Source: an uncultured Bacillota bacterium
GTDB taxonomy: Bacteria > Bacillota_I > Bacilli_A > RFN20 > CAG-826
Length of the DNA: 64,000 nucleotides
Direction of reading: 5' to 3'
Assembly (NCBI GenBank): GCA_949289845.1
Contig: CASEPN010000001.1
Span: 368,887 to 432,886, forward strand
The notes beneath the pieces were generated by a model. It was given only the letters and a program-made list of their open reading frames with translations. It ran no database searches and was not told the DNA's origin. A program made the translations under genes and the position numbers. How positions within the stretch are numbered: position 1 is the first letter of the stretch; each line of letters opens with the position of its first letter. Below, in pieces: positions 6,267 to 58,919 of the stretch.

Positions 6267-7613
6267 ATGGCTACGAGAAGGAAAAGCGAGGAGACGCGCG
6301 AGGAGAAGGAGCTCCGGAAGGCCGTGGAGGCCTCCGGGGTCGAGGAAGGGGAAGGCGAGAAGGACCGCTACACCCGCATCAAGGAGTCGCTCCTCAAGAA
6401 AGGCAAGGAGGAAGGCTACCTCCTCAGCGAGGAGGTCATGGACGCCGTCCGCGACTTCGACCTCGAGGACAGCGACCTCGAATCCCTCATCGCCTACTTC
6501 GCCGAGAACGGCGTCGAGGTGAAGGGCGAGGACGACGACTTCCAGGAGGAAGAGCAGGAAGGGGAGCCCCAGGACCTTTCCGAGGCCGACATGAAGGCCG
6601 GGGAGACGGAGGCCCTCGAGGACGAGATCGACGCCGAGGCGGAATCGGACGCCCCCAAGGACCCCGACGCCCAGGAGGCGGAGGACTTCGCGCGCTACCA
6701 GGCCGGCGAGGTCAAGGTCAACGACTCCGTCAAGATGTACCTCAAGGAGATCGGCAAGTACAACCTCCTCAAGCCCGCCGAGGAGACCGCCCTCGCCCAG
6801 AGGGTCGCCCAGGGGGACGAGCAGGCCAAGTGCCAGCTGATCGAGGCGAACCTCCGCCTCGTCATCTCCATCGCCAAGCACTACACCGGCCGCGGCATGC
6901 ACTTCCTCGACCTCATCCAGGAAGGGAACCTCGGCCTCATGAAGGCGGTCGACAAGTTCGACTGGCAGAAGGGCTTCAAGTTCAGCACCTACGCGACCTG
7001 GTGGATCCGCCAGGCGATCACCAGGGCCATCGCCGACCAGGCCAGGACCATCCGCATCCCCGTCCACATGGTCGAGACCATCAACAAGATGACCAGGGTC
7101 CAGCGCCAGCTCGTCCAGGAGCTCGGGCGCGAGCCCACCGCCGAGGAGATCAGCGCCAAGATGGAGGGCGCCCTTTCCCCCGAGCGCATCCGCGAGATCC
7201 AGCGCATCGCCCTCGAGCCCGTCTCCCTTGAGACCCCGATCGGCGAGGAGGACGACAGCCACCTCGGCGACTTCATCGAGGACAAGGAGGACCAGAGCCC
7301 CGAGGAGTACGCGACCAAGGCCCTTCTCCGCGAGCGCCTCTATGAGATCATGCAGGACCTCAACGACCGCGAGCAGAGGGTGCTCATCCTCCGCTACGGG
7401 CTCAACGACAACCGCCCCCGCACCCTCGAGGAGGTGGGGCGCGAGTTCAACGTCACGCGCGAGAGGATCCGCCAGATCGAGAGCAAGGCCCTCCGGAAGC
7501 TCCGCCACCCGAGCAGGGCGAAGATGCTGGGGGACTACAAGGATACGAACTTCGGCACCGGCCCTGACGCCCAGACCCCGGGCTCCGGGAGAAGGGGCGA
7601 GGACGAGGACTAG
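6267..7613 (+). CDS. rpoD: primary sigma factor RpoD/SigA
   Basis: Housekeeping sigma-70. A region 1.1-like acidic N-terminus (residues 1-145) is followed by region 1.2 ([16 protein letters not shown]), region 2 with the -10 recognition helix ([20 protein letters not shown]), region 3.0 ([10 protein letters not shown]), which contacts TGn extended -10 elements, and region 4 with the HTH ([20 protein letters not shown]). Length 448 aa. A strong AAGGAGG precedes the ATG. The intact region 3.0 fits the many TGn-extended -10 boxes in this window. A hairpin follows the stop. Confidence 0.97.
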
Positions 7614-46670: not shown

Positions 46671-48218
46671 CTAGCCTTCCCTGAGGATCTTCTCCGCGAG
46701 GTAGGTGTAGCGGAGCGTCCCGCGGAAGCGTTCCTCCCTCGCCCGGGCGAGGAGGGCGACCCTCTCCCCGGGCCGGAAGTCCTTGATCCCGAGACGGAAG
46801 CTGAAAAGGCGCGCGCCTTCCAAGAGGGTGGAGAGGTACTTCCCCTCCTTCACGAAGGAAAGGGAGTCGGCGGGAACCCCCTCGATCCTGAGGAGCGGGT
46901 TCCTCCAGCCTTCCCCGAAGGGGGCGAGGCTCCTTATGAGGCGGGCGTTCTCCCCGTTCGCCTCCCGGAGGGACATGGGGAGGGAAGGCTCCGCGGGGGG
47001 CTTCTCCCCCAGGGAGCGCTTGCCGGCCTCGAAGAGGAACTCCTTCCGGAACTCCTCCAGGTCCTCCGGGCGGATCGAGCAGCCCGCGGCCCCCTTATGC
47101 CCCCCGAAGGCGAGGGGCTTCCTCTCCATGTTCCTTAGGAAGGAGACCGCGTCCATCCCCTGGCCCGTCCTAAGGCTTCCGACGAGGAGGTCGCCCCTTC
47201 TCGCGAAGATGGCGACGGGGACGCCCCGCTCCTCGAGGAGGCGCGAGGCGATGAGCCCCGAGAGCCCGTCCTTCACGGGGAGGAGGTGCACTTCCCCGAT
47301 GCCCTGGGAAGGCGGAATCGAAAGCGCCGCCTCCTGGGCCAGGCGCTTCCGTTCCTCGTTCGTCTCCTTGAGGAAGAGGGCGATCCACTCTTCGTCCTTC
47401 CGGTCCGCGAAGTAGGTCAGGAGGCGATTGATCCTCCCCTCCTCGTCGAGGCGCCCCACCGCGTTGATCTTGCCGTTTACCTCGATCGCGACGTCCTCCT
47501 CGCTTCGCCCCTCCTTCTCCATGAGACGGAGGATCTCGGGGGGTTCTCCTTCCTCAAGGCGATGGAGCATCCTCCTGACCACCTGGCGGTTCGGCCCCCG
47601 GAGGGGCATGAGGTCGGAAAGGACGCTCAAGGCGGCGAGGGACTCGAGGTAGGGATCCTCCCTCTTTAGGAGGTTCGCGGCGAATAAATACGAATAGAAG
47701 CCCGCGCTCACCTGGGGCTCCACGTAGCCGTCGAGGAGAGGGTGGAGGATCCCCTCGCATTCCGGGAGACTCTCCGGAGGCGTGTGGTGGTCGAGGACGA
47801 GGACCTTGAGGCCAAGGGACCTCGCCTCCTGGATGGCCGCATACTGGCTCACCCCGTTATCGACGAGGAAGAGGAGGGAGTAGCCCGCCTGGGCGATCTT
47901 CCGGGCGTTTTCGATGGTCAGCCCGTAGCCGTCCTTGTAGCGCGTGGGAAGATACCCGCGCGACTCGATCCCGAACTCCCGAAGAGCGCGAAGGAGGATC
48001 GAGGCGCCCATCGCCCCGTCGACGTCATAGTCCCCGTAGACGAGGGCCCTCCCCTTGCTGGCGCGGGCCTCTTCGAGGACTTCCCTCGCCCTACGGAAAG
48101 AGGCCCCCTCCCCCATCTTCAGGGGAAGAGGCCTTTCCCAAGGGTCGATCAATAGGGCGGGCAGCTCTTCCTCCTTGACATGGAGGAAGGCAAGGAGCCG
48201 TTCCCGGAACCCCTCCAT
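46671..48218 (-). CDS. recJ: single-strand DNA exonuclease RecJ
   Basis: 5'-3' exonuclease of the DHH/DHHA1 family. Motifs: VYGDYDVDGAMGASILL, LVDNGVSQY, LVLDHHTPPE, then DHHA1 with GGHKGAAGCSIRPEDLEEF. About 515 aa, shorter than Bacillus RecJ because the C-terminal extension is missing. The start overlaps the secDF stop by one base (TGATG); the long upstream frame is inside secDF and is a shadow. In Bacillota recJ and rel are often near secDF. Confidence 0.93.
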   Translation of the reverse strand: MEGFRERLLAFLHVKEEELPALLIDPWERPLPLKMGEGASFRRAREVLEEARASKGRALVYGDYDVDGAMGASILLRALREFGIESRGYLPTRYKDGYGLTIENARKIAQAGYSLLFLVDNGVSQYAAIQEARSLGLKVLVLDHHTPPESLPECEGILHPLLDGYVEPQVSAGFYSYLFAANLLKREDPYLESLAALSVLSDLMPLRGPNRQVVRRMLHRLEEGEPPEILRLMEKEGRSEEDVAIEVNGKINAVGRLDEEGRINRLLTYFADRKDEEWIALFLKETNEERKRLAQEAALSIPPSQGIGEVHLLPVKDGLSGLIASRLLEERGVPVAIFARRGDLLVGSLRTGQGMDAVSFLRNMERKPLAFGGHKGAAGCSIRPEDLEEFRKEFLFEAGKRSLGEKPPAEPSLPMSLREANGENARLIRSLAPFGEGWRNPLLRIEGVPADSLSFVKEGKYLSTLLEGARLFSFRLGIKDFRPGERVALLARAREERFRGTLRYTYLAEKILREG

Positions 48219-50944
48219 CAGTCGTTGATCCCGATGAAGACGGATTCCTCGGGCTCGCCCCCGCGCTTCTTGGCAAGGACGTCGTTCCCGCGGGGCTCCC
48301 CGCTTTCCCTGTCCTTCCGGAACTCCACCTTGATCTTGGAGAAGAGGCGCGCGAGGAGCGTGGAGCAAGGCTCGAGGAGGAGGAGCGGGAGCCCGATCGA
48401 AAGGAGCGTCCCCGCAAGAGTCATGAGGAAGCCCATCTCCCAGGCGACGGGCCCGAGCCCGAACTCGAAGAGGAGGACGCCGAGCGACGTCCCGAGGAAG
48501 AGGAGCGCGTCGAAGGCGCTTTCCTGGACGCCCTTCCGGAGCGCCTCCTCCCGGAAGGCGAGGGAGCGCTTGTCCTTCTCGCGGGAATCCTGCTCGATCT
48601 CGCGCGCCCTGTGGAGCGGCATGAGGAGCAGAAGATAGGCGAGGAAGGCAGTCCCGAGCATCGCGATCGAGGCGGTCGGGCTGACCGGGATCCGGCAAAG
48701 AGCGAGGATCCCTGCGGGGACGAAGGACATCCCGGCGAGGAGGAAGGAGGCGGAAAGCCCCTTCGCGGGCCGGTAGCGGAGCACGAGGTAGAGGGCCATC
48801 GCGAGGAGCCCGATCCCGAGCCCGAGGGAGGCCGTCCCGAAGGAGGGGAGCCCCGGGGTCACCCGGACGTCCTGGGCGAGCGCGGTGAGGTCGGACCCCA
48901 CGGCGCTGTCGGCGGCGGCGGTCGCCGCGTCCTGGAGGCTCGTGAACTCCTGGCCCTCGACGGCGAACTTATATTCCTTGGCGGGGTCGAAGTACTCGGG
49001 AAGGTCGATCGTGAAGTAGTAGACCTCGAAGTAGCTCTCCTCCTCCGTGAGGTAGGAGGCGCTCTCCTCGAGGACGATGTCCCACTCGCTCCCGTCGAAG
49101 GGGGTGCCGTCCAGCTCGATGAGAGGGAGGTACTTCGTCCTCACGTTGTCGACGGTCGCCATGGCGAGGGTCGCGGTGTTCCCCGCGGGGACGCGGTACT
49201 CGAGCGCGAGGACGGTCTTGTCCTCATAGAGGGAGCCGAAGGAATAGGGCTCCCCGTCGAGCGCGCTGAAGGCGCTGAGCCCGGCGATCGAGGCGAGGAA
49301 GAGGGCGCCGTAGACGATCGCCCCGGGAAGGGCGCCCTTGCGGAAGTTGGCCTTGGCGAAGGGCCCCTCGCGCCCTTCCTTGAGGACCAAGGCGCCCGTC
49401 TCGTCCCGCTCGGGGAGCTTCTGGGGATCGGCGCCCCAGGTGGAGAGCACCTTCGTCGAGGCGCACTCGTCCCCCGAGAGGATGTTCCCGAGGAGACGGA
49501 CGAAGAGGAGGTTCCCCGCGCCGGAGAAGAAGGAGCCGAGGACGAGGGCGAGCCCGAGCTGCCCGAAGGCGCCCGGGATGAGGGAATAGACGCAGACCCC
49601 GAGGAGGATCCCGCCGATCGAGCCGTCCATGACGGGCCAGAAGGTCTTCTTCATGGCCTCCTGGTGGGCCTTCTTCGCGGAGCGCCCGAGGTAGAGCGAC
49701 TCCTTGACCTTGGAAAGGTACCAGATGGTGCCGTAGAAGGAGAGGAGGAGGGCGAGGATGAGTCCGACGAGCGTCCCGATCCCGAACTGGGCGCCGAAGT
49801 AGGAAAGGAGGAGGAGCGCGCCCATCAAGGTGATCGTCCCGTTGGCGAGGATCATGAGGGAGCCGAGGCGGTAGAAGGCGGCGCTCACGACGATGCCCAC
49901 GAGAAGCGCGCAGAGGGAGGCGATCATCGTCGCCCCCATCGCGGGGGCAAGATGCCACTCTCCGGCGGAGACGAGGGGCTCCACCGTCGGCTCGACGATC
50001 GTCGAGTAGGCGAAGGTGACGTCGTAGCCGGCGCCGATCTCGGCGTAGGAGCTCGCGTTCAGGAGCGACTCGTAGTAGAGGGCGGCCTTGTAGGCGGCCC
50101 CGGCCTTGCTCTCGTCGAACTGGCCCGACTCGATCGCGGTGCTGTTGGGGATGATCTGGAGGCGGGTGTAGTCGAGATCGTCGTCATCGTCGTCCCACCA
50201 CGCCTGCTCGGCGGGCTCGCCGAAGATGAGGCGCATCGACATGTTCGCGTCCCATTCCTCGTTATCGGAGTCGGCGGCGACGGCGAAGCTGTCCCCTTCC
50301 TGGTAGTTGCTCCAGAAGGCGAGGTAGGTGGTCTGCCCTTCCGTCCCGGCGGAGCTATCGGGCGCGGTCGTGTTCTCCTGGCAGTAGTCGATGAGCTGGG
50401 CGAGCTCCCCGTCCTCCCCGGGCTGGTTGACCCCGATCGTGACGACCGGGATGCCGTTCAGGTAGCGGATGTCGGCCTCCTGGCCGTCGAACATGAGGTT
50501 GTTCCGGTAGGAGTCGAAGGAGGGGGCGTTGGCGAGGATGTCCTCGTCCGTGGTGCCCGCCATGAGGGAGAAGTTCCCGCCGGAGAAGGGGAGGTAGCGC
50601 TGCAGATAGCCGTACTCCGTCTCGTCGGCGCTCTGGCTGCGGATCGTCACCTTGACGGTGCTGTAGCCCTCCTTCTCGACGGTCCCCTCGATCCCCCAGT
50701 GGGACAGGCGGGACTCCATCTCCTCGGCGACGAGGTCGACGGCCTGGTAGCCGTCCTCCTCGACGTAGTTCTCCGGATAGACCCCGTTGAGGGTCGTCCC
50801 TTCCTCGCTCACCCGGAAGTAAAGGGCTCGTCCCGTCCCGTAGGTCACGTCCGTGTCGAGGCTCGTGATGGTCGAGGCGATCGTGGCCGCTCCCCCGAAG
50901 AGGACCGCGGCGCTCAAGAGTATGTAGGCTAGCTTCCGACGCAT
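48218..50944 (-). CDS. secDF: fused SecD-SecF protein translocase subunit
   Basis: Proton-driven factor that helps pull secreted proteins out of SecYEG. 908 residues: TM1, a large periplasmic-type P1 domain with many acidic residues, the SecD five-helix bundle (FGIGTLVGLILALLLSFYGT), a second TM set with the SecF periplasmic domain, and the SecF helices (ASIAMLGTAFLAYLLLLMPL). Sequence is divergent from textbook SecDF but the duplicated topology and the gene order support the call. ATG 50944 has GGGAG; ATG 50983 follows TAAGAT by 9 nt and is an alternative leaderless start. Confidence 0.88.
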   Translation of the reverse strand: MRRKLAYILLSAAVLFGGAATIASTITSLDTDVTYGTGRALYFRVSEEGTTLNGVYPENYVEEDGYQAVDLVAEEMESRLSHWGIEGTVEKEGYSTVKVTIRSQSADETEYGYLQRYLPFSGGNFSLMAGTTDEDILANAPSFDSYRNNLMFDGQEADIRYLNGIPVVTIGVNQPGEDGELAQLIDYCQENTTAPDSSAGTEGQTTYLAFWSNYQEGDSFAVAADSDNEEWDANMSMRLIFGEPAEQAWWDDDDDDLDYTRLQIIPNSTAIESGQFDESKAGAAYKAALYYESLLNASSYAEIGAGYDVTFAYSTIVEPTVEPLVSAGEWHLAPAMGATMIASLCALLVGIVVSAAFYRLGSLMILANGTITLMGALLLLSYFGAQFGIGTLVGLILALLLSFYGTIWYLSKVKESLYLGRSAKKAHQEAMKKTFWPVMDGSIGGILLGVCVYSLIPGAFGQLGLALVLGSFFSGAGNLLFVRLLGNILSGDECASTKVLSTWGADPQKLPERDETGALVLKEGREGPFAKANFRKGALPGAIVYGALFLASIAGLSAFSALDGEPYSFGSLYEDKTVLALEYRVPAGNTATLAMATVDNVRTKYLPLIELDGTPFDGSEWDIVLEESASYLTEEESYFEVYYFTIDLPEYFDPAKEYKFAVEGQEFTSLQDAATAAADSAVGSDLTALAQDVRVTPGLPSFGTASLGLGIGLLAMALYLVLRYRPAKGLSASFLLAGMSFVPAGILALCRIPVSPTASIAMLGTAFLAYLLLLMPLHRAREIEQDSREKDKRSLAFREEALRKGVQESAFDALLFLGTSLGVLLFEFGLGPVAWEMGFLMTLAGTLLSIGLPLLLLEPCSTLLARLFSKIKVEFRKDRESGEPRGNDVLAKKRGGEPEESVFIGIND

Positions 50945-51024
50945 TGTTCGCTCCCATGTCCACGCGAGAAAAGGCGCTCGCATGCAGGGCGTATCTTAGC
51001 GCGCAGGCACGTGGGAGGGAAGAA

Positions 51025-51105
51025 GAGAACGCACGCGCCTTTTGCGCTTTCCGGAATATCCGGAAATGCAGGGGGTTTCTGAAGGGTTCTTGCGAAAGCC
51101 CTGAG
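51025..51105 (+). repeat. 80-bp cassette repeat, copy A
   Basis: Begins GAGAACGC and ends GGGTTTCTGAAGGGTTCTTG, with the central palindrome TTTCCGGAATATCCGGAAA. It lies just past the stop of the first small lipoprotein. Related copies are at 53980 and 56829. Confidence 0.75.
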
Positions 51106-51127
51106 CGTCGCAGGAGTCTCCGGAGCG

Positions 51128-51718
51128 TTACTTCAGGTGGAAGGTCAGCTCCCATCCTTCTTGGTTCAGGAAGAACGTGCTGCCCTTTCGAATGGTCGCT
51201 TCCCCATAGATTGTCTGCGGATCGAAATGGAGAGGGCTTGTCTCGCTATTCCCTTCGAGGGCCCAGGAAAGGATGCCGAACTTGTTCGGGAGGATGTATA
51301 TGTCGACGTTCTCAAGGCCTTCTCCTTGGTCGATTCGCAATTCTATGAGGTCGATGCAAGAGGAGGAGTCAAAGATAGGATTCGCCGCTGGTGCGTGGTT
51401 TCCCATCGCGTTCTTGAGGAGGCTTTGGGTGCGGGAGCGGACCTCGCCCTCCTCATCCGTGTACCAGTAGGCAACATCCTCGTAAGGGATGTCCTTTTCC
51501 TGGACCGGGGTCGCCCGGATCGTTCCATTCCAATCAAGTTCCGCGGTTCCGTGCAAGTCCCGATACGTGAAATAGGCGATCTCGTTCGTCCCCAAGGGAA
51601 TGTAGTAATTGGCGCCGATCTGTTGGAACAGAAGAAACAAATCGCAGGAAGTCAGGGAAAGCGCCCCCAATAGAAGGAGGCTCAAGGAAAGCGCTCGCCG
51701 TGGTGAAATCCTATTCAT
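51128..51718 (-). CDS. small lipoprotein LP1 of the peptidase cassette
   Basis: 196 residues. Signal peptide with lipobox SLTSC (Cys25), then a conserved about 165-residue domain: YYIPLGTNEIAYFTYRDL, YWYTDEEGEVRSRTQSLLKN, AMGNHAPA, ILSWALEGNSE and a C-terminal GWELTFHLK. Not recognised. Three intact paralogues exist in the window (also 54086 and 57250). ATGA overlap with the peptidase gene, so the pair is co-expressed and probably acts together outside the membrane. Confidence 0.8.
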   Translation of the reverse strand: MNRISPRRALSLSLLLLGALSLTSCDLFLLFQQIGANYYIPLGTNEIAYFTYRDLHGTAELDWNGTIRATPVQEKDIPYEDVAYWYTDEEGEVRSRTQSLLKNAMGNHAPAANPIFDSSSCIDLIELRIDQGEGLENVDIYILPNKFGILSWALEGNSETSPLHFDPQTIYGEATIRKGSTFFLNQEGWELTFHLK

Positions 51719-53238
51719 AAGGCCCCTTGGAGATGCAGTTCGACCTCAGAAGGATTGATCCAGATTCGAAGCTCGTTTATCACGAACCGCCCCTTGTTGG
51801 AGTCGCCGACAGCAAGAGAGGAAACATCAATTCGTAGCCCATAATGTCCAAGCGCGAAAGGAATCGTGCATGGCTTCGTCCTATCTTGCGGAATCCGATC
51901 GAGCTTCGAGGTGTAGTCCTTCACGACAACGAACGACATATTCGTCCCGCTTCTCCAACTGAATTTGAGTTCGTAGTTGTTACCATCGATATTTTCCTTG
52001 TCCCACGAACGCCAGAAAGAAACATCGAGCTCTGCGCGAGCAAGACGCACAGGGGAACGGAATTCGATCCAAGCGCTTCCGAAGTTCTCGCGGCGCGGGG
52101 AGAGCACGATGCATTCGTTCTCGTAGTTCTGAGTGCGAAGACGCCTGGTCTCGATCTCGAATGTGCCTCCCGAGGTCTCGACCGGGACGTAGTCCGTCGT
52201 GTCGAGGCCGGGATAGCCGGTGCCAAAAGGCATGTCTTCCGCAGAAATGGAAACCTCCTCCATCGCCGAGACCTCGCCGTCGGGTAGCAGGACCCAGACA
52301 TCATCGAAAGCGTACTGCCCCAGCCAGTCCATGTCGTAATAGCAAGGCTCGGAGAGCATCCAGTTTTCGTTCACGCGAAACATGACCTTCTTCTTGACGT
52401 CATGCATGGTCCGGACGTTCCACTCCTCGTAGCCTGTCACGGTGATGTAGTGGTTGCCATAGAAACGAGAGGAGGGCCCGCAGTTGATGACGAAGGGATA
52501 TCCCGCGTCGATAACGGACATGAAGAAGGCCTCGCGGTCTGGATAGACGCTGTCGATATAGTCCAGGTTCTTCATGGTCCAAAGGCCATCCAAGCCCTTC
52601 TTCTCCATCATCAGCGAAAGCGCATTGCCGAACCAAACGGGCAGCATCCCTGTCCCAGTGTCGCCCGGCCCAACGAAAACCTGGGAACAGTTCCATATCA
52701 GCTTCATCAGTTCGACTTGGTTCTCAAAGATCAAGTCGTCCTGCTGCCACTCGTATATCCAAGGGCAACCGCCCTCTCGTGCAAAGTAGTCGAGCAGAGT
52801 GAACAATGCGATTGGACCGCACCCTAGGCTTTTGCCTTCTCCTAAATTACCTTCTTCAATCAATTGCTGCCTTGCCTCGTAGAGCACATTCTCGGAAGCG
52901 GCGTGCGGAAGGTATTCATCATAGGAAGCGCTGTATGGGTAAACATTTTCCACAAACCCCGGCACAAAACGCGAGTCCTCTGTGTAGTAAGCGAGGTTTG
53001 GAGAGCCATTGATGCCAGGGAATAACTCATCTAGGTAGTCATATAGATGGAACTGAGGATTTTCTTTGTCGATATATGCGTCTCGGTTGCCGTTCACCGC
53101 GGCAAGATCAAAATCGGTGAGGCGCAAGCATCCTTTACTAAAGGACGCCCCCTCCGGCATCAAGGTTTCCTCAGGAAACGAAGGGCCACTAGAGGAAAGG
53201 CAGCAACCCGCAACCATCAGCAAACTTATGATTTCCAT
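51715..53238 (-). CDS. secreted papain/C39-like cysteine peptidase lipoprotein, copy 1
   Basis: 507 residues. A very short lipoprotein signal (MEIISLLMVAGCC, lipobox MVAGC) is followed by a papain-like domain: nucleophile candidate Cys140 in KSLGCGPIALFTLL, His263 in YGNHYITVTGY and Asn290 or Asn292 in FRVNENW. The order Cys-His-Asn matches C39/C10-type peptidases. After about residue 340, a beta-rich domain with GRFVINELRIW at the end resembles a jelly roll or adhesion module. Near-identical paralogue at 54676. Start uncertain: ATG 53253 would add MVYKD; ATG 53238 fits the extended -10. Confidence 0.75.
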   Translation of the reverse strand: MEIISLLMVAGCCLSSSGPSFPEETLMPEGASFSKGCLRLTDFDLAAVNGNRDAYIDKENPQFHLYDYLDELFPGINGSPNLAYYTEDSRFVPGFVENVYPYSASYDEYLPHAASENVLYEARQQLIEEGNLGEGKSLGCGPIALFTLLDYFAREGGCPWIYEWQQDDLIFENQVELMKLIWNCSQVFVGPGDTGTGMLPVWFGNALSLMMEKKGLDGLWTMKNLDYIDSVYPDREAFFMSVIDAGYPFVINCGPSSRFYGNHYITVTGYEEWNVRTMHDVKKKVMFRVNENWMLSEPCYYDMDWLGQYAFDDVWVLLPDGEVSAMEEVSISAEDMPFGTGYPGLDTTDYVPVETSGGTFEIETRRLRTQNYENECIVLSPRRENFGSAWIEFRSPVRLARAELDVSFWRSWDKENIDGNNYELKFSWRSGTNMSFVVVKDYTSKLDRIPQDRTKPCTIPFALGHYGLRIDVSSLAVGDSNKGRFVINELRIWINPSEVELHLQGAL

Positions 53239-53243
53239 GTCTT

Positions 53244-53252
53244 TATATACCA
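53244..53252 (-). promoter_or_regulatory. extended -10 of peptidase copy 1
   Basis: Minus-strand TG-G-TATATA ends 5 nt before ATG 53238. Confidence 0.5.
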
Positions 53253-53370
53253 TTACTTTTCAGATTAAACAAGAGATTAACCCGTTAGTTGACATCGGGA
53301 ACGCAACGTCGGGCCGGCGGCGGAATCGCAGCCGCTTCTGTGCCATACTTTGCTTGCCCCCCGCCTCGGA

Positions 53371-54062
53371 ATGGAAAAGCGAAAGAGCAAGAAGGCAAGG
53401 AGGGGCGGGGCGCCGCAAGGACCGCCGCCTCGACTTCACCGACCGCATCATCATCGAGGCATGCACCCTGGACCACCGGACCCTCGGGCAGATCGCCTCG
53501 CGGCCAGTCGATTCACCTCATCTACGCCTCCCCCGCCTCCGCGGGATCTGCTCCGAGAGGACGGTGAGGCGCCTCCTCTCCGCCAAGCCCCACCAGCTCC
53601 GGCGCTACGTCCGCTTCAGCCACCGGCTCCCTCCTACAGCGGAGGGAGGAGAGGCGCAGTGAGTGCCTTGTCCAGCCGAGTTCTGTGATCGGAAGGCCTT
53701 CCTGAACGCCATCGGCATCCGGCGGGTGCCGAAATGGTCAGGCTCCTACCCATAGCCTGACCTAGCTGGAGAGGCGGGGAGGGTGCCGCATCAGTGCTCG
53801 GACGACCGTTGCGCTGAGTTAGCCACACCTGCGCTCCGGCCCCTTTCCTCTCGCCCGGATTATGCCCCTGGGGCGCCCCCAAGGGCAAACTTTGCCGGGG
53901 TGAGCGCAACCTAGGCGCCCTTCCAGCCCGAAACACCCTAATCAGAGCCCCGGGGTTGCGACGGCTCTGTCATCTGACAAAGAGAACGCGCGTGTTTTCT
54001 GTAGTTTTCCGAATAATCGGAAAAGCGCGGGGTTTCTGAAGGGTTCTTGAGCAAATAGAGAA
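53371..54062 (+). pseudogene. IS30-family transposase remnant B
   Basis: The 847-bp gap 53239-54085 holds a decayed IS30 transposase. It starts MEKRKSKKARR, then, after a frameshift, RLDFTDRIIIEACTLDHRTL, the HTH start. A piece like ERTVRRLLSAKPHQLRRYVR resembles the next IS30 segment. Around 53660 CLVQ and SVIGR correspond to the first catalytic-Asp strand (DSVIG) but with the Asp lost. It ends in the 80-bp repeat (53980-54062). Several frameshifts and stops; not functional. Confidence 0.7.
53980..54062 (+). repeat. 80-bp cassette repeat, copy B
   Basis: Same element as at 51025: GAGAACGCGCG, the palindrome TTTTCCGAATAATCGGAAAA, then GGGTTTCTGAAGGGTTCTTGA. It stands 24 bp past the LP2 stop. 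Confidence 0.75.
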
Positions 54063-54085
54063 GCATTCCCAGCGCATCCGGCGGG

Positions 54086-54679
54086 CTACTTCAGGTAGAA
54101 GCTAAGCTCCCATCCCTCCCGGCTCATGACGAATTCGTTGGACTCCCGGTATGACCTGGCACCATAGGTCGCCATCGGGTCAAAGAGAAGGGGGTTTTCC
54201 TCGCTATTGCCCTCGAGGGCCCAGGAGAGGATGCCGAACTTGTTCGGGACTGCATATATGTCGACCTTCTCGAGCCCTTCCCCGCGGTCGATCTTCAGCT
54301 CTACGAGGTCGATGCATCGAGAAGTATCGTAAACTGGATCCGTTGCGGGCGCATGGTTTCCCAAGGCGTTCTTGAGGAACGTCAGGGTCTCGGAGAGGAT
54401 GTTTCCCTGCTCGTCGGTGTACCAATAGGTCACGTTCTCATAGGGGATCTCCTCCTTATCCACCCGGGAGGCGCGGATGGTCCCTTTCCAGTCGAGCTCC
54501 CTGTTCCAATCGGGGCTCCTGTACGTGAAACGCGCGATGACGCTCGTTCCCAAAGGAATGTAGTAGGTGGCTCTCATCTGGCAGTAGAGGTAGTAAAGTG
54601 CGTACCCGCCAGCGGCCAGGGCAAGCGCCACCGCCAGAAAAAGGACGGAACAAAGGGCGAAGCGGAAGCCCTTGCTCAT
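54086..54679 (-). CDS. LP2: partner protein with a membrane anchor instead of a lipobox
   Basis: 197 residues, the same domain as LP1 (YYIPLGTSVIARFTYRS, YWYTDEQGNILSETLTFLKN, ALGNHAPA, ILSWALEGNSEENPL, GWELSFYLK). The N-terminus differs: MSKGFRFALCSVLFLAVALA continues as an uninterrupted hydrophobic helix with no lipobox, so it should be a single-pass anchor. ATGA overlap with peptidase copy 2. Confidence 0.78.
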   Translation of the reverse strand: MSKGFRFALCSVLFLAVALALAAGGYALYYLYCQMRATYYIPLGTSVIARFTYRSPDWNRELDWKGTIRASRVDKEEIPYENVTYWYTDEQGNILSETLTFLKNALGNHAPATDPVYDTSRCIDLVELKIDRGEGLEKVDIYAVPNKFGILSWALEGNSEENPLLFDPMATYGARSYRESNEFVMSREGWELSFYLK

Positions 54680-56199
54680 AAAGTCCCCTGGAGATGCCTT
54701 TCCACATCCAAGGGATCGACCCAGACACGGAGCTCGTTTATGACGAATCGCCCCTTATTGGAGTCTCCGATCCCCAGACATCCGGTTTCAATCCGCAGCC
54801 CATAGTTGGGGACGCCGAAAGGAATAATGCAGGGTTTCGCTCTTTCTTGCGATATTCGGTCGATCTTTCCCATGTAGTCCTTGTCGACCATGAAGAGCGA
54901 GGCGGGGGCGCTTCGCGTGCCAAATTCCAGGTTGTAGGCGTTTTCCTCGATATATTCCTTTTCCCAGGATCGCCAGAAGGAAACATCGAGCTCGGCTCGA
55001 TAGAGGGGCACCGGCGAACGGAACTCGATCCAAGCGTTTCCGAAGTTCTCCCGACGCGGCGAGAGGACGATGCATTCGTCCTCGTAGTTCTGGGCGCGAA
55101 GGCGCCTGGTCTCGATCTCGAATGCGCCTGCAGAAGTCCCTACCGATACGTAATCGGGCGTTTCCACTCCGGGATAGCCGGTGCCGAAAGGCATGTCTTC
55201 CGCGGAAATGGCGATCTTGTCCAGGATGGAGACATCGCCATCTGGCAGGAGCACCCAGACGTCGTCGAGCAAATCTTGCCCCAGCCAGTCCATGTCGTAA
55301 TAGCAAGGTTCGGTCCGCATCCAGTTCTCGTTCACGCGGAACATCAGCTTCTGCTTCGTGTCATGCATCGTCCGGACTGTCCATTGTTCGTAGCCTGTCA
55401 CGGTGATGTAGTGCATCCCATAGAAACGCGAGGAGGGGCCGCAGTTGATGACGAAGGGATATCCGGCGTCGATCACCGACTTGAAGAATGCCTCCCGGTC
55501 GGGATATGCGCCATCGATGTAGCTAAGTCTCTTCATGGTCCAAAGCCCGCCCATTTCCTTCATGTTCATCATTCGCGAGATGGCGTCGCTGAACCAGAGG
55601 GGCAGCATTCCGGTCCCCACGTCGCTCGACCCGACGACGACCCATGAGCAATCCCAAACCTGCTTCATCAGCTCGACCTGGCTCTCGAAGACAAGTTCCT
55701 CCTGCTGCCATTCGTAAATCCAAGGGCACCCGCCCTCCCGGGCGTAGTAGTCGAGGAGGGTGAACAAGGCGATAGGCCCGCAACCGAGGTTCTCCCCCTC
55801 CTCCAGCTCCCCTTCTTCAATCAGTTGACTGTAGGCTTCGGTAAGGGGATTTTTAGTGGCGGCGTGCGGCAGAGGCTCGTTGTAATAAATGTCGCGAGGA
55901 TAGACGTTTTCCACGAATCCAGGGACGGAGTTGGAGCTGGATACGTAATAGGCAAGGTTCGGCGCTCCGTTGATGCCCGGGAACAATTCATCAAGGTAGT
56001 CGAACAGATGGTACTGAGGACGCGTCCCGTTCATATATTTGTCGCGGTTTCCGTTTGCGGCGTTCAGATCGAAATTCGTAAGACGCATGCATTCCTTGCT
56101 GAAGGACGCTCCTTCCGGCATCGCGACCTCTTCGGGAAAAGAGGGGCCGCTTGAGGAAAGGCAGCACCCCGCCACCATCAGTAAACTTAGTAGTTCCAT
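54676..56199 (-). CDS. secreted papain/C39-like cysteine peptidase lipoprotein, copy 2
   Basis: 507 residues, closely similar to copy 1 over its whole length, including MVAGCC lipobox, NLGCGPIALFTLLDYY, YGMHYITVTGY and FRVNENW, so the presumed catalytic triad is kept. Differences cluster in the loops of the peptidase domain (VSSSNSVPGF, SSDVGTGMLPLW) and in the beta-rich C-terminus. The frame is open upstream to 56508 through the transposase antisense, but ATG 56199 follows TG-T-TATATT by 5 nt and matches copy 1. Confidence 0.75.
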   Translation of the reverse strand: MELLSLLMVAGCCLSSSGPSFPEEVAMPEGASFSKECMRLTNFDLNAANGNRDKYMNGTRPQYHLFDYLDELFPGINGAPNLAYYVSSSNSVPGFVENVYPRDIYYNEPLPHAATKNPLTEAYSQLIEEGELEEGENLGCGPIALFTLLDYYAREGGCPWIYEWQQEELVFESQVELMKQVWDCSWVVVGSSDVGTGMLPLWFSDAISRMMNMKEMGGLWTMKRLSYIDGAYPDREAFFKSVIDAGYPFVINCGPSSRFYGMHYITVTGYEQWTVRTMHDTKQKLMFRVNENWMRTEPCYYDMDWLGQDLLDDVWVLLPDGDVSILDKIAISAEDMPFGTGYPGVETPDYVSVGTSAGAFEIETRRLRAQNYEDECIVLSPRRENFGNAWIEFRSPVPLYRAELDVSFWRSWEKEYIEENAYNLEFGTRSAPASLFMVDKDYMGKIDRISQERAKPCIIPFGVPNYGLRIETGCLGIGDSNKGRFVINELRVWVDPLDVERHLQGTL

Positions 56200-56204
56200 G
56201 CCAA

Positions 56205-56213
56205 AATATAACA
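56205..56213 (-). promoter_or_regulatory. extended -10 of peptidase copy 2
   Basis: Minus-strand TG-T-TATATT ends 5 nt before ATG 56199, the same arrangement as copy 1. Confidence 0.5.
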
Positions 56214-56332
56214 ATATTTTCCATATGCTACAAGAATGTGATGCCTTGCCGTTAAGTGACACTGGGAACACAACGCCCGCCCTGCCTGCTTCATGCTTGC
56301 TCGCCCTCCCAAGCCTCGGAAAGGAGACAGCC

Positions 56333-56905
56333 ATGAAGAAGAGAGGGCACACCCACCGCCTGGACATGGAGGACCGGATGGTCATCCAGGCATGCATCGC
56401 CAAGGGGGACGGCCTCGGGCGGATCGCCGCGAGGCTCAAGGCCAACAAGTCGACAGTCCCCGGCGAGATCGCGCGGGGTTCCACCGTCGTGCCGGGCCTC
56501 TCGGACATCTGGGTCCTAGTCGGCCGGACCTACAGCGACTTCCTCGAGAGGAGGGAGGCGAGGCCGGGCGAGTGCCTGGTCCAGCTGGACTCCGTGATCG
56601 GGAAGGCCTCCGGCAGGAGGGCCATCCTGCCAATCACCCTCCCGAAGTACGGCTTCCAATTCGGCAGGATCGTCGGGAAAGGGCGGCCCGCTTTCCCCTC
56701 GCCCGGATCATTCCCCTGGGGCGCTCGCGGGGTCAAGCTTGGACGCTTCCAACGCAACGCGAGGACGCGGACCGCCTCCGAAAGGTCCTGGTCAGCGCCT
56801 CCGCGTTGGGTTCCCGGCGTCACCTGGCAAAAGAACGCGCGGGCCTTTCTTGATTTCTTGAATATCCCAAAATTCAGAAGGTTTCTGAAAGGTTTCCTAG
56901 AATAA
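56333..56905 (+). pseudogene. internally deleted IS30-family transposase D
   Basis: An uninterrupted 190-codon frame with AAGGAG before ATG 56333. It begins like IS30 (THRLDMEDRMVIQACIAKGD, GRIAARLKANKSTVPGEIAR), then jumps to GRTYSDFLERREARPGECLV and QLDSVIGKASGRRAILPITL, the first catalytic-Asp strand. The rest of the DDE core is missing; the last 25 codons are the 80-bp repeat (NARAFLDFLNIPKFRRFLKG). A deletion derivative, unlikely to transpose. Confidence 0.7.
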
Positions 56906-56912
56906 TGGGAAG
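56829..56912 (+). repeat. 80-bp cassette repeat, copy D
   Basis: Begins AAGAACGCGCGG and ends GGTTTCTGAAAGGTTTCCTAG; the central palindrome is broken here. Most diverged of the three copies. Confidence 0.65.
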
Positions 56913-56929
56913 CAGTTTTCATCACTTCC

Positions 56930-57200
56930 CTCTTCATTTCGACCGGAAGCCAGGAACTGGCCCTCTCGGTCCATCAGGAAGGGGTAACAACTAAAGTCCG
57001 CCTGCGAATGTATCGTCACCGGGCCGCATGGGTGCCGGCGGAATCCGATTGCGTGAACATTGCTTCATTCGTCCCCAAGGGAAGGCAGTACCGGACAAAT
57101 GGCTCTCCGACGAGGTCGCAGGAGGAAAAGAAGAGCGCTCCAGGAAGGAAGGGCGGCTAGGGAAAGCACCTATGCGAAACCTTCCTTATAGGTCCTCCTA
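56930..57200 (-). pseudogene. decayed copy of the small lipoprotein gene
   Basis: Between repeat D and the LP3 gene, the sequence aligns to both ends of LP3 but not to its middle. CGGTCCATCAGGAAGG near 56971 matches the LP3 3' end, CATTCGTCCCCAAGGGAAG near 57067 matches the codons for PLGTNE, and GGTCGCAGG near 57112 matches the lipobox Cys-Asp codons. Internal deletion and many substitutions; no open frame. Confidence 0.6.
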
Positions 57201-57249
57201 TGGATGAGGCCTAGGGCACCGAAGTTCATGTTCTGCGCGTTCCCATCCC

Positions 57250-57873
57250 TCACTCATGCCTCTCCAGCCAGAAGGTCAGCGTCCATCCTTCCCGGTTCAT
57301 GAGGAAGTCGTGCCTCCGGTACCAGCCGGGCTCGTGGATCGTCATCGGGTCGAAGAGAAGGGGGTTTTCCTCGCTGTTCCCTTCGAAAGCCCAGGAAAGG
57401 ATGTAGAACGTCTGGGGAAACACGTAGATGTCCACGTCCTCCATGCCCTCCCCGCGGTCGACGTCGAGCTCGACGCGGTCGATCCACTGCGGGGCGTCGT
57501 AGATCGGCGAATGGCCGCCGGCATGGTTCCCCATCGCGTTCTTAAGGAGGGTTTGGGTGCGGGAACGGACCGCGCCTTCCTCGTCCGTGTACCAGTAGCT
57601 CACCTCCTCCCAGGGGATGTCCTCCTCGTCCACGAGGAAGGCCGAGATAGTCCCCTTCCAGCCGAGCTCCGCCGTTCCGTAGAAATCGGTATAGGTGAAA
57701 TATTCGATTTCGTTCGTCCCCAAGGGGAAGACCCGGTAGTACCCCCTCAGGGTGGAAAGGAAGTTCGGGTCGCAGGCGCTCAGGAAAGACAGTGCCGCAA
57801 AGAAGGCCGCGACGAGCGAAAGGTTCCTCCAGAAAGGGATTGCTCGGCGCCGCGCTCTGCCCCTTTTCTCCAT
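57250..57873 (-). CDS. LP3: solitary small lipoprotein paralogue
   Basis: 207 residues. Longer, Arg-rich signal sequence with lipobox SFLSAC (Cys34), then the LP domain: VFPLGTNEIEYFTYTDFYG, YWYTDEEGAVRSRTQTLLKN, AMGNHAG, ILSWAFEGNSEENPL, GWTLTFWLE. No peptidase gene is attached. GC content is closer to the core genome than in LP1/LP2. A weak extended -10 (TG-C-TAGCCT, 57879-57887) ends 5 nt before ATG. Confidence 0.8.
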   Translation of the reverse strand: MEKRGRARRRAIPFWRNLSLVAAFFAALSFLSACDPNFLSTLRGYYRVFPLGTNEIEYFTYTDFYGTAELGWKGTISAFLVDEEDIPWEEVSYWYTDEEGAVRSRTQTLLKNAMGNHAGGHSPIYDAPQWIDRVELDVDRGEGMEDVDIYVFPQTFYILSWAFEGNSEENPLLFDPMTIHEPGWYRRHDFLMNREGWTLTFWLERHE

Positions 57874-57914: not shown

Positions 57915-58919
57915 TCAGAAGAGGGGCTTCTGGAAGGATTTCCGGAGGTGGCGGTACGCCTTCTCGGTCGCGACCCTTCCCCTGGGCGTGCGGTCGATGA
58001 GGCCGATCATGATGAGGTAGGGCTCGTAGACGTCCTCGAGGTTCGTGATCTCTTCCCCGATCGCGGAGGCGATGGACTCGAGGCCCACCGGCCCCCCGCG
58101 GTAGCGCTCGATGATGGCCTCGAGGTAGCGGAGGTCGACGTCGTCGAGCCCGAGCTCGTCGATGTGGAGGGCGGAGAGGGCCATCCTCGAGATCTCCTCG
58201 TCGATCGTCTCGTGGCCGAAGAAGGAGGCGAAGTCCCGCACCCTCTTGTAAAGGCGGTTGGCGATCCTCGGGGTGCCGCGGCTCCTTTGGGCGAGGATCC
58301 TGACGCTTCCCTCGTCGATGGGGGTCCCGATGACCCTCGAGGTGCGGCGGATGATGTCCTCGATCTCCTCCTCGCTATAAAAGTTCAGCTTCGCGGAAAT
58401 GCCGAAGCGGTCGCGGAGAGGGGCGGCGAGGTCGCCCGCCCTCGTGGTGGCGCCCACGAGGGTGAAGGGCGGGAGGGGCAGCGTCAAGGTCCTCGTCGAG
58501 CCCTCGCGGTTCATCACGATCTGGAGGCGGAAGTCCTCCATCGCCCCGTAGAGCACCTCCTCGACGGCCCTTGAGAGGCGGTGGATCTCGTCGATGAAGA
58601 GGATGTCCCCTTCCTCGAGCTCCGAGAGCACGGCGGCCAGGTCCCCCGTCTTCTCGACGGAAGGCCCCGAGAGGGTCCTTACCTGTCCCCCCATCTCCGC
58701 GGCGATCACGTAGGCGAGCGTCGTCTTCCCGAGGCCCGGGGGGCCGTAGAGGAGCACGTGGTCGAGGGGCTCCTCGCGCTTCCTGGCCGCCCCGATGAAG
58801 ATGCGGAGGTTCTTCTTGAGCTCGGTCTGGCCGATGTACTCGGAAAGGGTGCGGGGCCGGAGGGTCTCGTCTACCCCGAGGTCTTCCTTGTCCTTCTTCG
58901 CGTCGAGGAGGCGGCTCAT
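57915..58919 (-). CDS. ruvB: Holliday junction helicase motor RuvB
   Basis: AAA+ branch-migration motor. Walker [21 protein letters not shown], Walker [12 protein letters not shown], sensor 1 [18 protein letters not shown] and the winged-helix C-terminus ([17 protein letters not shown]). 334 aa. Starts in an ATGA overlap with ruvA. Confidence 0.97.

What the first reader, a model, noticed from the sequence alone, without database searches (positions are those of the whole stretch)
51025..57873. Tandem peptidase-lipoprotein cassettes of unknown function
A two-gene unit (secreted papain/C39-like cysteine peptidase plus a small anchored partner, ATGA-coupled) is present twice in about 2.9-kb direct repeats. 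A third intact and a fourth ruined copy of the partner are beside it. Catalytic Cys, His and Asn are kept in both peptidases, and the beta-rich C-terminus could bind a surface or a substrate. The fixed pairing suggests enzyme plus inhibitor, chaperone or receptor, for example in competition, host interaction or a surface-processing system. I know no described system with this pair.
Basis: partly seen in the sequence, partly recalled or inferred. Interest (0 to 1): 0.64.

Follow-up and report, generated by a model that had tools for sequence, protein, structure and literature searches.

The report
Secreted proteases paired with guardian lipoproteins
A probably wall-less gut bacterium carries two tandem copies of a secreted papain-like protease gene, each followed directly by a gene for a small membrane-anchored protein that is probably the protease's own inhibitor; the same arrangement, with one shared C-terminal module but four different protease classes, recurs across its relatives.

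Summary
In detail: two peptidase-partner units in ~2.96-kb direct repeats between ruvB and secDF, a third intact partner and remnants of a fourth. The peptidase is a papain-fold enzyme (model closest to interpain A/SpeB, Z about 12; Cys145-His268-Asn297) with a C-terminal jelly-roll module (resembling CBM29, gingipain K2/K3, MAM). That 160-residue module, with no Pfam match, is the real theme: it occurs on over 50 secreted peptidases of four classes (cysteine, HExxH metallo, subtilisin, trypsin) in related gut MAGs. 37 of 52 of these genes lie next to a small lipoprotein gene (control 28/256; p=2e-18). Lipoprotein families follow the catalytic class (8/9 class-pure; 0 of 100,000 permutations), whereas the module tree needs at least 12 class changes, so the lipoprotein probably acts on the protease, not the module. 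Intact partners persist beside broken peptidases or alone; never the reverse in the window's family. Best reading: exported protease plus cognate surface inhibitor, working like Bacteroides bfp-bfi (C10 protease plus staphostatin-like lipoprotein). The arrangement is thus known in kind; shared module, four classes and lineage are new. Inhibition is inferred, not shown.

The parts
51128..51718 (-). partner 1: 196-aa lipoprotein (lipobox LTSC), ATGA-overlaps peptidase 1
51715..53253 (-). peptidase 1, 512 aa from 53253 (probable start 53238); papain-like, Cys145/His268/Asn297
52282..52977 (-). papain-fold catalytic domain of peptidase 1 (residues 93-324)
   Evidence: model pLDDT 79; interpain A Z 12.6, SpeB Z 12.2
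51760..52239 (-). C-terminal jelly-roll module of peptidase 1 (residues 339-498)
   Evidence: module HMM and alignment A1; pLDDT 84-96 per block; matches CBM29, gingipain K2/K3, MAM chains
54086..54679 (-). partner 2: 197 aa, N-terminal hydrophobic anchor but no lipobox Cys
54676..56199 (-). peptidase 2, 73% identical to peptidase 1, catalytic triad kept
54721..55200 (-). C-terminal module of peptidase 2
57250..57873 (-). partner 3: intact lipoprotein (lipobox LSAC) without its own peptidase
   Evidence: dN/dS 0.12 against the G026 ortholog
56945..57150 (-). remnants of a fourth partner (N- and C-terminal pieces, middle lost)
56351..56479 (+). IS30-type transposase HTH_38 remnant in the spacer, antisense to the cassettes; spacer 53260-54085 shares three blocks with this spacer
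   Evidence: Pfam HTH_38 E 1.6e-6; spacer similarity
51023..51097 (-). ~70-nt element with palindrome TTTCCGGATATTCCGGAAA, about 30 nt 3' of partner 1
53980..54054 (-). second copy of the ~70-nt element, 3' of partner 2
56829..56903 (-). decayed third copy of the ~70-nt element, 3' of the ruined fourth partner

Best explanation
Each cassette makes an exported papain-like protease and, from the next overlapping gene, a small membrane-anchored surface protein that binds the protease's catalytic part and keeps it from digesting the producer (and perhaps its kin). The C-terminal jelly-roll module, shared by proteases of four classes, would deliver the enzyme to a common target such as a glycan or surface. 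SHOWN: gene pairing, intact triad, folds of both peptidase domains (predicted model), shared module, lipoprotein enrichment, partner families tracking catalytic class rather than module, partners outliving peptidases, no PBP transpeptidase or MraY found in the own genome. INFERRED: secretion, partner-protease binding, inhibition, protective role, the module's ligand.
For: (1) 37 of 52 non-edge module-peptidase genes have a small lipoprotein gene within 250 nt on the same strand, against 28 of 256 control genes (Fisher p 1.9e-18); several known pairs are missed by this count (e.g. window partner 2, which has no lipobox). (2) Lipoprotein families follow the catalytic domain: 8 of 9 families are class-pure and none of 100,000 permutations reached 8, while the module tree needs at least 12 class changes. 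Two natural swaps agree: L105 has the catalytic domain and lipoprotein family of L099/L077 but a module closer to L076/L106; L082 has the catalytic domain and lipoprotein family of L076 but a module closer to metallo-type L081. (3) In the window's family, partners stay intact where the peptidase is truncated (L044, catalytic Cys lost), reduced to module fragments (L064, L065) or not detected nearby (partner 3, L063, L067); partner 3 is under purifying selection (dN/dS 0.12). No intact peptidase of this family lacks a partner. (4) Partner arrays of 2-3 beside one peptidase (L051, L056, L048) or on both sides (L060, L117). (5) The closest solved folds of the catalytic domain are SpeB and interpain A; SpeB and Bacteroides C10 enzymes have adjacent inhibitor genes, predicted lipoproteins up- or downstream in Bacteroides.
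Against: No inhibition or binding was tested and no complex could be predicted. The partner model is poor (pLDDT 50), so its fold is unknown; its PDB matches, mostly lipocalin-like barrels at Z up to 5.4, are below noise. The partners match no inhibitor family in Pfam or NCBIfam. About 15 module peptidases have no lipoprotein found within 250 nt. Class tracking could partly reflect co-inheritance of linked genes. A chaperone or activator would also track the catalytic domain.
Confidence: 0.55

Rival explanations
1. The lipoprotein is a dedicated folding chaperone, activator or substrate-presenting partner of the protease, as MIB is for MIP in mycoplasmas, and the protease needs it to work.
For: It would also track the catalytic domain and be co-encoded; the likely wall-less lineage and multi-copy arrangement recall MIB-MIP, where MIB recruits and activates the protease and most species carry several copies (PMC8593674).
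Against: A helper without its enzyme should decay, yet partners persist beside broken peptidases or alone and partner 3 is under purifying selection. Arrays of 2-3 partners per enzyme are not needed for a helper. Partners are about 170 residues when mature, far smaller than MIB, described as an enlarged version of the 62-kDa protein M.
Confidence: 0.2
2. The lipoprotein is a surface receptor that docks the shared C-terminal module and so keeps the protease on the cell.
For: The module has a ligand-binding type fold and the partner is membrane-anchored.
Against: One conserved module is paired with many unrelated lipoprotein families, and the families follow the catalytic class rather than the module, including two natural module swaps.
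Confidence: 0.08
3. The partners are fast-changing surface antigens or decoys that merely lie in the same mobile, IS-associated variable loci as the proteases.
For: The locus is hypervariable: flanks about 99-100% identical to G018, partner 1 down to 69%; IS30 remnants and deletion derivatives; many unrelated lipoprotein families.
Against: Tight gene coupling (ATGA), class-pure pairing over distant genera and purifying selection (dN/dS 0.12-0.33) argue for a specific shared function.
Confidence: 0.12

Closest known systems
Bacteroides C10 protease - staphostatin-like inhibitor pairs (bfp/bfi, btp/bti; PMC2873492, PMC3462683)
   Same: Papain-fold secreted protease; small predicted inhibitor genes within 35 bp, up- or downstream, sometimes both (bfi1A-bfp1-bfi1B); several inhibitors predicted lipoproteins, some not; paralogous gene sets; some on mobile DNA.
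   Different: Different phylum and envelope; partners here are longer (196-207 aa against 116-138 aa) and match no staphostatin profile; peptidases carry a C-terminal jelly-roll module also found on metallo, subtilisin and trypsin-type enzymes; inhibition untested.
SpeB-Spi (Streptococcus) and staphopain-staphostatin (Staphylococcus)
   Same: Papain-like protease with a co-transcribed adjacent gene for a specific inhibitor; SpeB is among the closest solved folds to the catalytic domain (Z 12.2).
   Different: Spi and staphostatins are thought to act in the cytoplasm (PMC3462683); here the partners carry lipoprotein or membrane-anchor signals. No Pfam C10 hit above cut-off and no staphostatin hit.
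MIB-MIP (mycoplasma immunoglobulin binding protein and protease)
   Same: Surface two-protein protease systems of wall-less bacteria, often in several copies.
   Different: MIP is a serine protease recruited and activated by the large Ig-binding MIB; here the window enzyme is a cysteine peptidase and the partner is small and outlives its peptidase.
Polymorphic toxin - immunity loci (PMC3482391)
   Same: Variable catalytic domains with adjacent family-specific small proteins, partner arrays and orphans, a constant shared part.
   Different: The constant part is C-terminal and the variable catalytic part N-terminal, the reverse of the C-terminal toxin layout; partners are surface-anchored whereas most immunity proteins there are cytoplasmic; no antagonism shown.

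Membership tests
Peptidase family C10 (streptopain/interpain) | papain fold with catalytic Cys and His (and Asn) | tested here: met
   Model residues 91-324 align with interpain A (Z 12.6) and SpeB (Z 12.2); Cys145, His268 and Asn297 present and conserved in relatives. Active-site geometry was not inspected.
Peptidase family C10 (streptopain/interpain) | match to the curated C10 profile above cut-off | tested here: not met
   No C10 hit for window proteins; relatives only below cut-off (L109, L112, L069). Peptidase_C39_2 is also below cut-off. Filed only as C10/C39-like papain fold.
Protease plus adjacent cognate lipoprotein inhibitor (Bacteroides bfp-bfi type) | inhibitor gene adjacent to the protease gene | tested here: met
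   ATGA overlap in both window units; 37/52 module peptidases with an adjacent lipoprotein gene, control 28/256. Adjacency only; that the neighbour is an inhibitor is not shown.
Protease plus adjacent cognate lipoprotein inhibitor (Bacteroides bfp-bfi type) | partner is a staphostatin-like inhibitor | tested here: inconclusive
   No inhibitor family hit in Pfam or NCBIfam and no credible sequence match to a solved inhibitor; low-confidence barrel model with lipocalin-like matches up to Z 5.4.
Protease plus adjacent cognate lipoprotein inhibitor (Bacteroides bfp-bfi type) | partner inhibits the protease | not testable with these tools
   needs a biochemical assay
MIB-MIP | serine protease with a large Ig-binding partner | tested here: not met
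   The window enzyme has a papain fold with a Cys active site; the partner is 196-207 aa. Description of MIB-MIP from PMC8593674.
Polymorphic toxin systems | variable toxin domain at the C-terminus of a shared delivery part | tested here: not met
   Catalytic domain is N-terminal, the shared module C-terminal.
Carbohydrate-binding module / gingipain adhesin / MAM domains (C-terminal module) | beta-sandwich jelly-roll fold | tested here: met
   Z about 9-10.5 over 120-137 residues with CBM29, CBM8, gingipain K2/K3 and MAM-containing chains.
Carbohydrate-binding module / gingipain adhesin / MAM domains (C-terminal module) | sequence membership in a named family | tested here: not met
   No Pfam, NCBIfam or PDB sequence match to the module above cut-off.

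The most novel reading that the evidence does not exclude
Probably wall-less gut bacteria of this group share a modular peptidase armoury: one C-terminal targeting module recombined with cysteine, metallo, subtilisin and trypsin proteases, each guarded by its own lipoprotein immunity protein on the cell surface, with orphan immunity lipoproteins protecting non-producers. It would be an interbacterial antagonism and kin-protection system based on secreted proteases.
Probability: 0.22. Interest if true: 0.82.

Novelty: new variant of a known kind. Interest (0 to 1): 0.55.

Why it matters
It links a family of unnamed secreted proteases and unnamed lipoproteins in uncultured, probably wall-less gut bacteria into one system with a testable logic: shared module for delivery, swappable catalytic domain, and a class-specific surface guardian. 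If the guardians are inhibitors, it extends cysteine protease-inhibitor gene pairs to metallo and serine proteases, offers a set of new protease-inhibitor families, and explains the otherwise puzzling orphan lipoproteins.

Tried and rejected
Pfam and NCBIfam for all five window proteins: only sub-threshold C39_2 and one DUF hit. Structure of the partner from 4 sequences: pLDDT 50, not interpretable; its PDB comparison gave only weak barrel matches. Profiles of module and partner against PDB sequences: nothing credible. An earlier downstream-only count of lipoproteins (27 of 60) underestimated pairing because many partners lie upstream. The idea that the partner is the module's receptor was considered and set aside because lipoprotein families follow the catalytic class. 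A recent tandem duplication was rejected: dS between the copies is about 1.3. The ~70-nt element 3' of each partner is not a genome-wide repeat (only these copies and one 17-base match). Literature searches for a description of this pair in this lineage found none; the paper library is partial. Catalytic classes of some module carriers were assigned by motif (HExxH, GGQSGSP), which is weaker than a profile match.

Full report
OBSERVATION. The window (G000:C1:368887-432886 of a 1.30-Mb, 4-contig assembly, 98% complete) has, on the minus strand between ruvB (57915-58919) and secDF (48218-50983), the order partner 3, remnants of a fourth partner, peptidase 2, partner 2, peptidase 1, partner 1. 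Repeats lie 2957-2961 bases apart. The two peptidases are 73% identical with dS about 1.26 and dN/dS 0.14, the partners 52-58% identical with dN/dS 0.22-0.33: an old, constrained duplication, not a recent one. Spacers contain the remnant of an IS30-type transposase HTH and a ~70-nt palindromic element 3' of each partner.

WHAT THE PEPTIDASE IS. AlphaFold2 on an alignment of 34 sequences gave mean pLDDT 79, the module mostly over 90 and residues 1-63 under 50. Residues 91-324 match interpain A (Z 12.6), SpeB (Z 12.2) and a C39-like peptidase (Z 10.7); residues 326-505 match CBM8, CBM29, gingipain K2/K3 adhesin and MAM-containing chains at Z 9-10.5. Cys145, His268 and Asn297 are conserved. No curated family is matched above cut-off, so it is filed only as a papain-fold, C10/C39-like peptidase.

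THE SHARED MODULE. The C-terminal 160 residues define a profile found on 43 ORFs in the first set of loci and 62 unique ORFs after the named-genome scan. Sampled searches found it in 29 of 395 genomes of the class; in the phylum sample no listed hit lay outside the class. Named carriers are MAGs mostly labelled Erysipelotrichaceae, Acholeplasmatales, Anaeroplasmataceae, Bacillales or Bacilli. Catalytic parts are papain-like (39 genes), HExxH (9), trypsin (3) and subtilisin (4) by profile or motif. The own genome has a third carrier, an HExxH protein with its own adjacent small partner. No PBP transpeptidase or MraY was found in the own genome although controls rang, so it is probably wall-less.

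PAIRING. Using a lipobox rule, 37 of 52 non-edge module genes have a small lipoprotein gene within 250 nt on the same strand, up- or downstream, against 28 of 256 other genes of the same loci (p 1.9e-18). The lipoproteins fall into many unrelated families, some in arrays of two or three, and match no Pfam family beyond a weak lipid-attachment hit and one chance-level hit. Of nine families that span two or more distinct peptidases after collapsing near-copies, eight contain one catalytic class only; 100,000 permutations gave at most seven. The ninth is the metallopeptidase partner family, one member of which sits as an orphan behind a cysteine cassette in G018. The module tree needs at least 12 changes of class, so the module has been exchanged between classes while the lipoprotein stayed with the catalytic part; L105 and L082 show this directly.

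FATE OF PARTNERS. In the near relative G018 (ruvB 99.7%, secDF 99% identical) the same locus is a deletion derivative in which the start of a partner 3-type gene is joined to peptidase codon 236, losing the catalytic Cys, while the partner remains open. In G026, two loci keep an intact-looking partner beside short module remnants. Partner 3 has dN/dS 0.12 against its G026 ortholog. Identity to G018 falls from 99-100% in the flanks to 69-79% in partner 1 and returns to 97% in the end of the peptidase, which points to exchange or fast change of the partner.

MECHANISM. The most economical reading is protease plus cognate surface inhibitor. It explains co-encoding, class tracking, arrays, orphans and the surface anchor, and it is how the closest fold relatives are organised: SpeB-Spi, staphopain-staphostatin, and in gut Bacteroides C10 proteases with small predicted inhibitors, several of them predicted lipoproteins, up- or downstream and co-transcribed (PMC2873492, PMC3462683). 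A helper or activator role (as MIB for MIP, PMC8593674) is the main rival; it fits class tracking but not the survival of partners without peptidases. Whether the enzymes act on hosts, food protein, or neighbouring bacteria is open.

LIMITS. No partner fold, no complex, no biochemistry. Gene calls and the lipobox rule are simple scripts. MAG assemblies are fragmentary, so some absences may be artefacts. Near-identical loci were collapsed only partly. Class labels of some carriers rest on motifs.

Noticed in passing
L044 (G018:C3:246000-257000), about 6836-6848: Deletion junction joining a partner 3-type gene (first 63 codons) to peptidase codon 236, equivalent to loss of about 5.1 kb between window 52549 and 57686.
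   Followed up: partly
window 51023-51097, 53980-54054, 56829-56903: A ~70-nt element with the palindrome TTTCCGGATATTCCGGAAA follows each partner gene; elsewhere in the genome only a 17-base match was found. Function unknown (terminator, regulatory site or insertion scar).
   Followed up: partly
G249:C9:88016-88246: A partial module match (E 4e-11) in an open frame reported as 24,217 aa, a possible giant protein in the same class.
   Followed up: no
window 53238 and 56199; L043, L045, L047, L066, L073: Module peptidases often start with a short hydrophobic stretch without a positive n-region (e.g. MELLSLLMVAGCC, MISELLCTLVAAVSYA), an odd signal sequence.
   Followed up: no
L048, L053, L056, L059, L060: Some cysteine-type module peptidases carry a further domain after the module (motif HWYRQNSDGTWSHKPG; weak DUF7689 match).
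   Followed up: no
L043 6079-6807: A probably damaged second copy of the metallopeptidase partner upstream of the own-genome metallopeptidase, closest to the orphan copy in G018 (75% identical).
   Followed up: partly
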